From Terriglobia bacterium (GTDB lineage Bacteria > Acidobacteriota > Terriglobia > 20CM-2-55-15): a stretch of 49,263 bases of DNA. A program made the translations under genes and the position numbers. The notes beneath the pieces were generated by a model, which saw only the letters and a program-made list of their open reading frames with translations, did not search any database and was not told where the DNA came from. Positions within the stretch are counted from its first letter, which is position 1. Every line of letters starts with the position of its first letter. The DNA lies in NCBI GenBank assembly GCA_036496425.1, contig DASXLG010000253.1:1-49263 (forward strand), given 5' to 3'. Of this stretch, positions 1 through 15,725 are shown one piece after another.

Positions 1-300
1 AAAAGTCTCTGGCTTACGGCTCGCGGTAAGGCAGAGAAGAAAAAAGTCTCTGGCTTACCGGCCGCGGTAAGGCAGAGTAGAAAAAAGTCTCTGGCTTACC
101 GGCCGCGGTAAGGCAGAGAAGAAAAAAGTCTTTGGCTTACCGCTCGCGGTAAGGCAGAGAAGAAAAAAGTCTCTGGCTTACGGCTCGCGGTAAGGCAGAG
201 AAGAAAAAAGTCTCTGGCTTACCGGCCGCGGTAAGGCAGAGAAGAAAAAAGTCTCTGGCTTACCGGCCGCGGTAAGGCAAAGAAGAAAAAGTCTCCGGTT
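1..300. repeat. 41-bp tandem hairpin array (array 1)
   Basis: Seven consecutive units start at 5, 46, 87, 128, 169, 210 and 251, exactly 41 bp apart, and a decayed eighth starts at 291 after a 40-bp step. Each unit is a near-perfect inverted repeat (left arm TCTCTGGCTTACCG, right arm CGGTAAGGCAGAGA, one mismatch in 14) around a 4-base loop, followed by an A-rich linker. The loop is GCCG or CTCG; the unit at 128 changes the loop and keeps the stem, while units 5 and 169 carry one stem mismatch. There is no spacer between units, so this is not a CRISPR. The array runs off the left edge of the window. Confidence 0.93.
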
Positions 301-591
301 TGACCGGCCTACATGGCTCGTCGAGATCAAATGTCCCGCTCGTTATCTATCGTTGGCCGGTTTGGGTGACCGCCGAGCCTTTAGTGTATGGTTTTGCCGC
401 AGGTTAGGCTCCATTTGCCTGGGAATGATAAAGCGTCCATCTTTAGTGACGTCATCCGGCCGTTCGGAGGCAGCCGGTTTCGAAAAGAGAATGGGGAGTG
501 TTAGTACCGGCCATACGGGTATAGATGAGCGTAAACATGCGACAATTCGCCGCATTGTCAACGAACGCCCGTCCGCCTAGCATTCGATTCC
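301..591. other. intergenic stretch upstream of TonB receptor
   Basis: About 290 bp lie between the hairpin array and the receptor gene. Short frames exist on both strands, but none has a ribosome binding site, a recognisable product or conserved-looking composition. I see no clear promoter. The receptor's promoter must lie here or in the array. Confidence 0.5.
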
Positions 592-3105: not shown

Positions 3106-3369
3106 CTACGTCACGTTGAAGAGCAGCTTGAAACCGTAATCCATATGGAGCTGCTGGTGACAGTGGAACAGCGTAAGCCCTTCCATTGCAGGAACAAAAT
3201 CTACCGCGATTTTCCGGAAGCCCTTGACGAGAACCACATCCTTCATCACGCCGGAGGTTGGCCTTCCGTTAACGTTCGTCAGTTCGAAGCTGTTCCGGTG
3301 CAGGTGGACGGGGTGGGCATCGTCGGTCTGGTTATCGAAGATCAGGCGGTAGAAGGATAGGCAATTCAA
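3106..3369 (-). pseudogene. C-terminal remnant of a multicopper oxidase
   Basis: The frame encodes the last roughly 80 residues of a multicopper oxidase. HPVHLHRNSFEL holds the HxxHxH copper ligands, and LFHCHQQLHMDYG holds the HCHxxxH type 1/type 3 copper motif near the usual C-terminus. The two N-terminal cupredoxin domains are missing: the first residues (MNCLS) do not belong to the family, and stops precede them in this frame. A functional enzyme needs about 450 residues or more. I read it as a truncated gene left after a rearrangement; it lies beside another fragment and a repeat array. Confidence 0.8.
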
Positions 3370-3509: not shown

Positions 3510-3826
3510 AGAAAACCCAACTTGTAATTCCTATGCCAGCCATCGCGCTTACAAGTTCGAACTTGAGATCCCCATGCCTGGCATGGGGATCACAAGTTTG
3601 AATTGAGAGTTCTCATGCCGGGCATCGTGAACACAAGTTCGAAATGGGAATTCTCATGGCCGGCATGGGGATTACAAGTTTGAACTGAGAAATCCCATGG
3701 CCGGCATGGGGACTACAAGTTCGAATTGGGAAATCCCAAGCCTGGCATGGAGACTACAAGTGTGAACTGGGAAATCCCGAGTCTGGCATCGCAACTACAA
3801 GTTCGGTCTTGGGATTCCCAGCAAAA
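3510..3826. repeat. 41-bp tandem palindromic array (array 2)
   Basis: Units begin with ACAAGT at 3551, 3592, 3633, 3674, 3715, 3756 and 3797, exactly 41 bp apart; a decayed partial unit precedes (about 3517-3550) and the last is incomplete. The first unit holds two adjacent perfect palindromes: CAAGTTCGAACTTG (3552-3565), and a 12-bp stem from 3567-3578 to 3580-3591 around one T (core CATGCCTGGCATG). Later units keep the second palindrome in degenerate form, often centred on GGCCGGC. The sequence is unrelated to array 1, but the period is the same. No spacers and no coding frame run through it. Confidence 0.93.
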
Positions 3827-4025
3827 AAATGTTTCGAAACGAAACATCCTGGTCTGATTTCCTGTAAATATTTTTCTGCCCTAACTCGTTCGTTTTCTCC
3901 CGCTCACGGCGATTTGCTCCCCGGAGACCTCATTTTCGCGTCTCAGTTCCGATTTTTAAAACGGTTCCATAAGTATGAGGCGCGAAAAACCGCCTCAAAT
4001 CGAACACAGAGAGGAGGTGATAACG

Positions 4026-4661
4026 ATGAAAAGGAAAGAGATCAAGGCATTGCTTGGCTTTGACGGCGTATCGGATGGGGATGTGCTCCACCGCGGCGTC
4101 AACCTTCAGACCAATTTGACCGGTAATTCGCATTTTCCGAATCCGCCGGTCGATCTTGCCGTCCTGCAGGCGGCGCTGGAGACGTTTGCGGCATTGATTG
4201 CGCAGGCGCTCGACGGCAGCAAGCAGGTGATCGCCCGGAGAAACCAGCAACGGGTGACTGTCATTCACATGCTGCGGCTCGTGGCGCGCTATGTGGAAAT
4301 GGCGTCCGGCGGTGAGTTCGCCGTGTTTCAGACCAGTGGCTTCCAGGCCGCTGAGATTACGCGGGCGACGCCGCCGCCGTTGTCGGAGAGGATCCGCAAG
4401 CTCAAGCGCGGAACCCATAGCGGAGAAATCGTCGCGTGGATACAACGGATGCGTGGCGCTTCCGGCTATCAATTCCGCTGGGGCCAGGCGGTGACCGGCA
4501 CAGTTCCGGCCGTGTGGACGACTCTCCCGCTTACACGTGTCAAGCAGGCGGTGACCATTACCGGCCTGACGGCGGGGATGACGTATATGTTCCAGGCGCG
4601 TGCATTGGCCCGGAACAAGTTCACCGACTGGAGCGATCCGGTCACGTTCGTCTGCGGATAG
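4026..4661 (+). CDS. hypothetical protein with C-terminal fibronectin-III-like segment
   Basis: 211 residues, no recognised overall family. The start is fixed by a strong Shine-Dalgarno sequence, AGGAGG at 4012-4017, 8 bases before the ATG. Residues about 1-110 are predicted helical, including an Ala/Leu-rich stretch (LAVLQAALETFAALIAQAL). The last 65 residues look like one fibronectin type III strand set (YQFRWG, VTITGLTAGMTYMFQARA, WSDPVTFVC). No signal peptide is visible, so it is probably cytoplasmic. Related acidobacterial proteins of this shape exist to my memory but without a function. A GC-rich inverted repeat follows at 4680. Confidence 0.7.
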   Translation: MKRKEIKALLGFDGVSDGDVLHRGVNLQTNLTGNSHFPNPPVDLAVLQAALETFAALIAQALDGSKQVIARRNQQRVTVIHMLRLVARYVEMASGGEFAVFQTSGFQAAEITRATPPPLSERIRKLKRGTHSGEIVAWIQRMRGASGYQFRWGQAVTGTVPAVWTTLPLTRVKQAVTITGLTAGMTYMFQARALARNKFTDWSDPVTFVCG

Positions 4662-13095: not shown

Positions 13096-13422
13096 TTTTG
13101 TGGCTAATTGTCTTAGTTCCTCAAGGAGATCCAGCCGGAATTCGTTTGCTTCAGCGAAGCCTTCAAGGTCGGGCACCTTATTCAAATCGACCTCGCGAGC
13201 GCAGGTATTACAGCCGTCGGTCGCGTAAAGAACGTGATCTGTGCTGGAATATGCCAGCATACGGGGACTCTCACTGTCGCGGAGAACCCGCCCATTCTTC
13301 TCGTATGCATCGGGGTCCACCAGCCAGACATCCGGGCTTCCCAGCCGCCGGATGGAGTCGGCATCGAAATGAATCAGCTCTGAAGCGGCCGCGGAGAGCG
13401 AACGCTCGTGAAAGAAATTCAT
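13084..13422 (-). CDS. hypothetical protein coupled to nuoBCD
   Basis: 112 residues, family not recognised. It contains [19 protein letters not shown], the pair [13 protein letters not shown], and a CNTC motif in DGCNTCARE. There is no signal peptide or membrane segment. Its ATG overlaps the nuoBCD stop (ATGA), so it is translationally coupled to a complex I gene, and its stop lies inside the terminator loop. That context suggests a role with complex I or its Fe-S clusters; this is inference only. Confidence 0.7.
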
Positions 13423-15725
13423 TTTTCCAGCTCGCCGGCTACGATGTTCAGTGAGCCGAGTGCCGCGACGGCGTCGGACAGGTATCCGCCCTTAACCATG
13501 TGGCTGAAGGCCTGGAAAATGTAGAAGCAGGTGCCGCGGCAGCGCAGGCGGTACGGGCGTTTCGTGCCGTCGCTGATGAGATAAAACCCGAGTTCTCCGT
13601 TTGCCGCTTCCCAGTAGGAATAGACTTCGCCGACCGGGGGCAGGATGCCGTCCTGAATCAGTTCGAAGTGATTCATCAGATCTTCGATATTCGAGTAGAC
13701 GCCTTTCTTCGGCGGCAGGCTGATCCTGCGGTCGTCGATCTGGACCGGGCCTTCGGGAAGATTCTCGAGCGCCTGTTTGATGATGCGGAGGCTTTGCCGG
13801 ATCTCTTCCACCCGGACGAGGTAGCGGTCGTAGACATCGCCCTTCTCGCCGACCGGTATGTCGAACTCGAACTTGTCGTAGTCGTAATTGGGGAACCACT
13901 TCCGGACATCGTAAGGCACGCCGCAGGCCCGCAGCGTCGGACCGGTGAAGCCCCAGTCGATGGCGTCTTCCGCTGAAATCGGAGTGATGCCCTCGGTGCG
14001 CATCTTGAAAATCTTGTTCTGGCGATTCATCTTCTCGATATCATCGAGATATTTCGGAATCGTGTCGAGCAGCGTCCGGGAACGCGTGACGAAGTCTGCA
14101 GGAATGTCATCGGCCAACCCGCCGATGCGGACGTAGCTGACCGTCAGGCGTCCGCCGCAACAGGATTCGAGCAGATCGTAGATCTCTTCACGCGGCCGGA
14201 ATCCATACCAGAAGTTGCTGATCGCGCCCATATCCACGAGATTCGTGCCGATGCAGACAAGATGATCGGCAATCCGGCTGAACTCCGAGAGGATGACGCG
14301 GATATATTGCGCGCGCTTCGGAATTTCGACGCCGAACATTTTTTCAACCGACATCGCGTAGGCGACGCCGTTCATCATGGCCGACATGTAATTCAGGCGA
14401 TCCGTGTAAGGAATCACCTGCCAGTACACGTGGGTTTCGGACATCTTTTCGAAGCAGCGATGGAGATAGCCGATCTCGGTGTCGGCGTCGATGATCCTTT
14501 CACCGTCCACCGCAACCTGCAGGCGGAAGGTGCCGTGCATCGCCGGATGCTGCGGGCCGACGTTCAGGATCTGAGGGTGCGCCAATCCCATCGATTCGGC
14601 ATATTTCTTCGCGCGCTCGACGACGGGCAGGTCGTCGGTTGTCGTGCACGGCGTGCGCAGGCCGGGAGGGAAGTCCTTCCGGAGCGGATGCCCGACAAAT
14701 TGGGAGTGCGTCAGCACGCGCCGCAGGTCGGGATGACCGTTAAACCGGATCCCGTACATGTCGTACGCTTCACGCTCGGACCAGTCGGCGCCTTTCCAGA
14801 TATCGGTTGCCGTATCGATTGTCGGATCGTCGCCCGGAACCGGCACCTTCAGCCGCAGCCGGTGCTTATTCGAGAGCGACAGCATGTGATAGACAACGTC
14901 ATATCTCGATGCGCGCTCGTTGAGATAATCGACGGCCGTGACGTCGAGGAGCATTTTGAAATCGAATTCCGGATCGCTTTTCAGCGCGCGCAAAACCGAT
15001 TTGGAACTCTCACGTTTGACCGTTATGGAAAGATCGCCGCGGAATTCGCGCATGTGGAGCACATCGTTCGGAAACTTCCGCCGGAAGGCATCTGCGATCG
15101 GCCCCTGAACTTCCTGGTTTTCTTCGAGGAACCGGACCAGGCCGCGCGGCGGGCCCTCGAGGCCGTGAACCGTGGCGTCGAGTTCGGGTGTTTTCAGCTT
15201 GGTCTGGCGCGGGTGGCGCTCGTAGGAGAGCCTGGTATCGTTTTCGACTTGCTGTTGCAGTTTGATAACAGCATCCAGCACGGCTTCCGGTGTCGGAGGG
15301 CAGCCTGGAATATAGACGTCGACCGGAATGATCTCGTCGATACCCTGCATCACATGGTATGCGCGATAGAAGCCGCCGCAAGTCGCGCAAGCGCCCATGG
15401 AAATGACCCATCGGGGCTCCGCCATCTGATCGTAGATCTGTTTCAGAATCGGGCCCATTTTGTCGTTAATGGTGCCCAGGACCATCAAAACATCCGACTG
15501 CTTTGGCGAAAACCGTACGACTTCCGATCCAAACCGGGCGATGTCATAATGCGACGACACGGTCGCCATGAATTCGATTGCGCAACACGCCGTCCCGAAG
15601 GGATAAGGCCAGAGGGAACTCTTGCGCGCCCAGTTGATGAGGGAGTGATAGGTGGTGGTGAAAAAGCTCTCGTGCTCTCGCTTGGTTTCGACTTCGGCGA
15701 CACTCATAAACTTTGATTGTAGCAT
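13419..15725 (-). CDS. nuoBCD: NADH-quinone oxidoreductase, fused subunits NuoB-NuoC-NuoD
   Basis: 768 residues joining three complex I peripheral-arm subunits. NuoB (about 1-160) has tandem C47-C48 plus C113 and C142, the N2 cluster ligands, in [19 protein letters not shown] and IPGCPPTPE. NuoC (about 190-370) has the signature [16 protein letters not shown]. NuoD (about 385-768) starts at [18 protein letters not shown] and is complete. NuoCD fusions are common; a B-C-D fusion is rarer. The start at 15725 or at 15707 (MSVAEVE) are both possible. No other nuo gene is adjacent. The only partner is the 112-residue protein overlapping its stop. Confidence 0.95.

What the first reader, a model, noticed from the sequence alone, without database searches (positions are those of the whole stretch)
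3551..3838. Array 2 unit is made of two abutting perfect palindromes
The first unit is almost entirely palindromic: a 14-bp palindrome plus a 12-bp-arm palindrome fill 39 of 41 bp. Later units decay away from it, as if it were the ancestral or most recently copied one. Array 1 units are also hairpins. Arrays of adjacent hairpins could be targets of a structure-binding protein, or single-strand substrates.
Basis: seen in the sequence. Interest (0 to 1): 0.6.

Follow-up and report, generated by a model that had tools for sequence, protein, structure and literature searches.

The report
Two-turn-spaced palindrome arrays upstream of genes
This acidobacterial genome carries many intergenic arrays whose DNA sequences are unrelated to each other but which nearly all repeat every 20-21 or 40-41 bases, mostly as palindromes, and many sit just upstream of one genus-specific, roughly 50-copy gene family, so they look like control arrays kept for their spacing and not their sequence.

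Summary
The palindromic unit is real: 14 bp (3552-3565) plus 12+1+12 bp (3567-3591) fill 39 of 41 bp. But it is one of seven units of a 41-bp tandem array (3519-3820). The other units mostly fold little better than shuffles, show no compensatory changes, and do not decay in order from it.

The array is one of about 20 in 1.21 Mb of this genome. They fall into about 14 families with no detectable sequence similarity, yet 20 of 22 periodic intergenic regions repeat at multiples of 20-21 bp (two helical turns). Most are palindromic, so dyads recur about every 20.5 bp.

The gene just downstream (4026-4661; helical plus fn3 domain) is one of about 50 paralogues, found full-length only in this genus and one other genome of the phylum. 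Arrays lie directly upstream of 5/8 such genes here versus 17/797 other genes (p=5e-7), and 3/9 versus 4/265 in sister species. They end upstream of conserved promoter-like blocks; one clade has sigma-54-like promoters, and at two loci a divergent activator-type gene lies across the array.

Most likely: double-stranded operator/enhancer arrays with conserved spacing and diversifying sequence. The binding protein is not shown, and about two thirds of sampled arrays lie elsewhere.

The parts
3519..3820 (.). Array 2 (family B): 7.4 copies of a 41-bp dyad-symmetric unit
   Evidence: TRF; dyad test; whole-array fold; only one place in this genome and no match in 40 relatives at E<=0.001
3552..3565 (.). 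14-bp perfect palindrome CAAGTTCGAACTTG (axis 3558.5)
3567..3591 (.). Palindrome with 12-bp perfect arms and a 1-nt centre (axis 3579)
3829..3847 (.). Separate promoter-proximal dyad ATGTTTCG-AAA-CGAAACAT (axis 3838), comparable in position to the promoter-proximal dyads of other loci
   Evidence: sequence; dyad scan; counterparts
3970..3996 (+). Conserved promoter-like block TAAGTATG followed by a short stem-loop (GAGGCG...CGCCTC)
   Evidence: alignment with paralogues and the G004 relative; not sigma-54-like and not a consensus sigma-70 match; function inferred
4026..4661 (+). Gene of the expanded family: 211 aa, N-terminal helical bundle plus C-terminal fn3 domain
1..309 (.). Array 1 (family A): 7.5 copies of a 41-bp hairpin unit at the contig end; the family occurs at about 10 places in the genome
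49074..49263 (.). Array 3 (family C): 4.6 copies of a 41-bp unit at the contig end; dyad symmetry not significant
   Evidence: (p = 0.06)

Best explanation
Shown: the genome holds many intergenic arrays from about 14 families without detectable sequence similarity, nearly all repeating at multiples of 20-21 bp and mostly dyad-symmetric, so successive dyads face the same side of the double helix. Shown: a subset, including array 2, lies directly upstream of genes of a roughly 50-copy fn3-domain family and ends upstream of conserved promoter-like blocks; the link recurs in sister species. Inferred: these are double-stranded operator/enhancer arrays. A dimeric regulator (for the sigma-54-like clade plausibly the divergently encoded FHA-GAF-AAA+ activator) binds the dyads cooperatively along one face of the DNA and controls the downstream gene. 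Selection keeps the spacing while the recognised sequence diversifies between paralogues, perhaps so that copies are regulated separately. Inferred: arrays away from such genes are decayed, dispersed, or serve other genes.
For: 20 of 22 periodic intergenic regions have lags at multiples of 20-21 bp, 0 in shuffles; families do not match each other by blastn. Dyad symmetry significant for families A, B, D, E, F, G, J; most arrays hold about 2-6 times more dyads than shuffles; arrays match their own reverse complement. Gene link: 5/8 versus 17/797 (p = 5e-7) here and 3/9 versus 4/265 (p = 8e-4) in sister species. Homologous H arrays beside sister genes of two species. Arrays lie upstream of conserved promoter-like blocks; five genes have a sigma-54-like element in the top 0.7-3% of background genes; divergent FHA-GAF-Sigma54_activat gene across the array at L158, and a divergent FHA-domain homologue at L170. 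CGCAACCTRYARGTTGCG occurs at four places only, all beside F arrays.
Against: About two thirds of the sampled arrays are not beside a family gene, and family A lies at both 5' and 3' sides of unrelated genes. No binding or expression data. The window gene lacks a sigma-54-like promoter. Families C, H, I, K and M show no or marginal dyad symmetry over the whole unit. Three of eight family genes here and at least four of nine in sister species have no array.
Confidence: 0.5

Rival explanations
1. Dispersed palindromic repeat elements (REP/BIME-like) that were spread and amplified by a hairpin-processing transposase or by slippage; the gene link arises because gene and upstream DNA were duplicated together.
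For: Family A is at about 10 places beside unrelated genes; families M, I and F have several loci at 70-93% identity; one pair of family A loci shares flanking DNA.
Against: About 14 families share the period but no sequence, whereas REP families are defined by sequence. No transposase was among the annotated neighbours. Arrays are enriched upstream of one gene family in several species.
Confidence: 0.2
2. A mutational process with a two-turn ruler (for example a nuclease, topoisomerase or wrapping protein acting at 20-21 bp) makes tandem duplications of this length anywhere in non-coding DNA; the arrays have no function.
For: Fixed period with arbitrary sequence; arrays beside unrelated genes; hairpin centres of family A occur in both orientations, as template switching would give.
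Against: Does not predict an excess upstream of one gene family or homologous arrays beside sister genes in two species.
Confidence: 0.15
3. The arrays are transcribed and act as tandem RNA hairpins in a leader or a separate small RNA.
For: Whole array 2 folds with z = -7.8; array 1 units are strong hairpins; weak excess of G-T over A-C mismatches on the gene-sense strand, 42 to 23 (p = 0.025, cells not independent).
Against: No covariation in most arrays; most units of array 2 do not fold better than shuffles; no Rfam family at gathering score; the promoter-like blocks lie between array and gene; a fixed 20.5-bp spacing is not needed for RNA hairpins.
Confidence: 0.1

Closest known systems
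Upstream activating sequences (enhancers) of sigma-54 promoters bound by bacterial enhancer-binding proteins (established knowledge)
   Same: Dyad sites upstream of a GG-N10-GC promoter element, sites on one face of the DNA, activator gene divergent at L158
   Different: Usually a few sites of one sequence; here about 7-25 dyads per array, a different sequence for each gene group, and arrays also upstream of promoters without a sigma-54-like element, as in the window
REP/BIME palindromic repeats (PMC3733652)
   Same: Short intergenic palindromes, some in tandem, some dispersed through the genome
   Different: REPs share sequence and a GTAG or CGTC tag; here about 14 families share only the period, and no transposase was seen next to them
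Plasmid iterons (established knowledge)
   Same: Tandem protein-binding repeats at about two helical turns
   Different: About 20 chromosomal-contig arrays in a 1.2-Mb sample, beside unrelated genes; no Rep gene or origin shown
Tandem and palindromic repeats upstream of Mycoplasma hyopneumoniae genes (PMC5179023, abstract read)
   Same: Intergenic upstream repeats proposed as cis-regulators
   Different: The abstract states no common period and no link to one gene family

Membership tests
Sigma-54 enhancer (UAS) array | Sigma-54-type promoter (GG-N10-GC) downstream | tested here: inconclusive
   Five linked genes in the top 0.7-3% of background and an aligned TGG-A-CGTGC block in six genes of two clades; absent at the window gene
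Sigma-54 enhancer (UAS) array | Sites bound by an enhancer-binding protein | not testable with these tools
   Only gene neighbourhood: divergent FHA-GAF-Sigma54_activat gene at L158 and an FHA homologue at L170
REP/BIME elements | Families share a sequence with a GTAG or CGTC tag | tested here: not met
   About 14 families without blastn similarity; the tag was looked for by eye only in the consensus units and no common tag was seen
REP/BIME elements | Tyrosine transposase gene linked to the repeats | tested here: inconclusive
   None among annotated neighbours of the arrays examined; the whole genome was not searched for it
CRISPR array | Conserved repeats separated by unique spacers | tested here: not met
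   Every position of the unit recurs; paired and unpaired columns of array 2 are similarly conserved (0.84 and 0.80)
Structured RNA | Covariation of paired bases | tested here: not met
   Array 2: 50 against 52.1 expected, 0 double changes; 444 against 443 over 14 arrays. Family F has a few double changes
Plasmid iterons | Replication origin with a Rep gene | not tested
   About 20 arrays beside unrelated genes make one origin unlikely

The most novel reading that the evidence does not exclude
A lineage-specific regulatory code: members of a roughly 50-copy gene family carry their own arrays of many dyads at two-turn spacing, read by matching regulators, where spacing is the conserved trait and sequence is the variable address. 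It would be a bacterial counterpart of multi-site enhancers on a genome scale.
Probability: 0.25. Interest if true: 0.85.

Novelty: new variant of a known kind. Interest (0 to 1): 0.66.

Why it matters
Repeat arrays in bacteria are normally recognised by shared sequence. Here unrelated sequences share only geometry, and that geometry follows a rapidly expanded gene family across species. If the arrays are regulatory, they are a natural series for asking how many sites, at what helical phase, long cooperative assemblies on bacterial DNA need, and how regulator and site diversify together in dozens of paralogues. If they are a mutational product, they point to a process with a two-turn ruler. 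I found no report of either.

Tried and rejected
Hairpin-RNA reading: per-unit folding, covariation, Rfam and G-T/A-C asymmetry, rejected as the main explanation. Protein-coding repeat: 41 is not a multiple of 3 and no called gene overlaps an array. The palindromic unit as ancestor: the unit identity matrix shows no ordered decay. A common transposon flank for family A: flanks differ apart from one shared pair. All arrays linked to family genes: rejected, about a third are. Plasmid relatives of the protein: none. PHROGs gave weak fn3-type matches to tail proteins for two paralogues; no NCBIfam family passed its cut-off; Foldseek matched the fn3 half and not the helical half. Paper searches gave no report of such arrays in Acidobacteria.

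Full report
Observation. The described unit exists. CAAGTTCGAACTTG (3552-3565) and GATCCCCATGCC-T-GGCATGGGGATC (3567-3591) are perfect palindromes with axes 20.5 bp apart. It is one copy in a 41-bp tandem array of 7.4 copies at 3519-3820, and it is the second copy, not the first. Only this copy is nearly fully palindromic; the later ones keep 5-9 of 12 and 3-5 of 7 pairs and mostly fold no better than shuffles. Copies are 27-35 of 41 identical with no gradient away from the palindromic one. The arms do not covary. The consensus unit is 83% dyad-symmetric against 47% for shuffled units, and the array matches its own reverse complement.

Geometry. A tandem repeat of period P with one dyad axis must have a second at P/2. 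A 41-bp dyad unit therefore places dyads every 20.5 bp automatically, which explains why the unit looks like two abutting palindromes.

Genome context. The window is one contig of a 6.16-Mb, 407-contig assembly. A sister genome (G004) carries a family member identical to one in the public record QHWY01000035.1, an acidobacterium labelled gp5. Both ends of the window are 41-bp arrays of other sequences. I sampled 1.21 Mb of the genome. Among 22 intergenic regions with strong internal periodicity, 20 have best lags of 20, 40, 41, 80-82 or 124 bp and two of 14 bp; shuffled regions gave none. By blastn the arrays form about 14 families without detectable similarity. None overlaps a called gene, although 82% of the sample is called coding. 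In family J the ~20.7-bp units occur in both orientations (by inspection of the consensus), and in family A hairpin centres occur in both orientations. Sister species have arrays of 20, 21, 40, 41 or 80 bp. The shared property is spacing, about two turns of B-DNA.

Gene link. The gene just downstream of array 2 (start 4026 chosen by its ribosome-binding site) encodes a 211-aa protein with an N-terminal helical bundle and a C-terminal fn3 domain. A search gave 52 matches in this genome (a few are fragments of one gene), 22, 8, 6 and 2 in four of five sister species and none in 25 other genomes of the family and class. In about 300 genomes of the phylum, full-length matches outside the genus came from one genome only. 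Counting only genes reached by protein search or by plain contig sampling, 5 of 8 here have a periodic array within 700 bp upstream against 17 of 797 other genes (p = 5e-7), and 3 of 9 in sister species against 4 of 265 (p = 8e-4). A decayed family member lies beside one more F array. Some copies stop at a contig end just upstream, so the true fraction is uncertain. The nearest relative of the window gene, in G004, has a short stretch resembling array 2 before its contig ends (score 28, maximum 27 in 300 shuffles).

Conservation. Sister genes L076 (this genome) and L165 (another species) have homologous H arrays; at L076 a frame with a sigma-54 activator domain, apparently disrupted towards its end, lies between gene and array. 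The F clade (L062, L122, L158 here; L170 in another species) keeps 40- or 80-bp arrays; promoter regions are 69-72% identical, but array similarity is about 67% and does not reach E = 1e-4 in an array-only comparison. In this comparison the period outlasts the sequence.

Promoters. Gene-linked arrays end roughly 110-250 bp before the start codon (read). Between array and gene lie separate dyads and a conserved block. In six genes of two clades the block contains TGG-N-A-N5-CGTGC, a sigma-54-like GG-N10-GC element at -60 to -84; five score in the top 0.7-3% of 841 background genes. At L158 an FHA-GAF-Sigma54_activat gene is divergent across the array; at L170 a divergent FHA-domain homologue, cut by the locus end, lies in the same place. 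CGCAACCTRYARGTTGCG occurs at only four places in the genome, all beside F arrays. The window gene and its closest paralogues have a different conserved block, TTTAAATAGTATGGGGC, followed by a short stem-loop, which matches neither sigma-54 nor consensus sigma-70.

Interpretation. Position, dyads, helical spacing and the divergent activator favour double-stranded operator or enhancer arrays. The binding protein and any effect on expression are unproven. About two thirds of the sampled arrays, including the multi-locus family A, are not beside a family gene, so a dispersed-repeat or mutational-ruler origin for part of them remains open.

Limits. Draft genomes, a 1.21-Mb sample, a simple home-made gene caller, and shuffles as null models. 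The sigma-54 matrix was written from memory of the published consensus. Pair counts within one array are not independent. Arrays were merged into families only when blastn found similarity, so some families may share a remote origin.

Noticed in passing
L079 5574+, L134 6145-, L164 1439+, L171 2310- (and L169 by eye): Family genes without an upstream array share a 5' leader GAAGG-N-CGGCCG-N-CCTTC-N8-40-CGGCC, a possible H-type RNA pseudoknot; the pattern was found only at these genes in all fetched DNA, with no Rfam match.
   Followed up: partly
window 13419-15725 (-): One reading frame matches the 20-kDa, 30-kDa and 49-kDa subunits of respiratory complex I, a NuoB-NuoC-NuoD fusion.
   Followed up: no
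window 3109-3369 (-): Short multicopper-oxidase fragment between the TonB receptor gene and array 2, probably a gene remnant.
   Followed up: partly
L110 1501-1748 compared with other family A arrays: The hairpin centre appears inverted (TCCCGC for GCGGGA) while the arms keep their orientation, as template switching would give.
   Followed up: no
G000 contig C115 at 17634 and 17855: An F array with a CGCAACCTATAGGTTGCG dyad but no family gene detected nearby.
   Followed up: no
L079 1372-1445: Group II intron match at gathering score, between an 81-bp-period array and the next gene.
   Followed up: no
L085 and L099: Homologous 81-bp-period arrays lie next to related HSP20-like frames, so array and neighbour were probably duplicated together.
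   Followed up: no
window 1 and 49263: Both contig ends lie inside 41-bp arrays, so the arrays probably break the assembly and the true number and lengths are underestimated.
   Followed up: no
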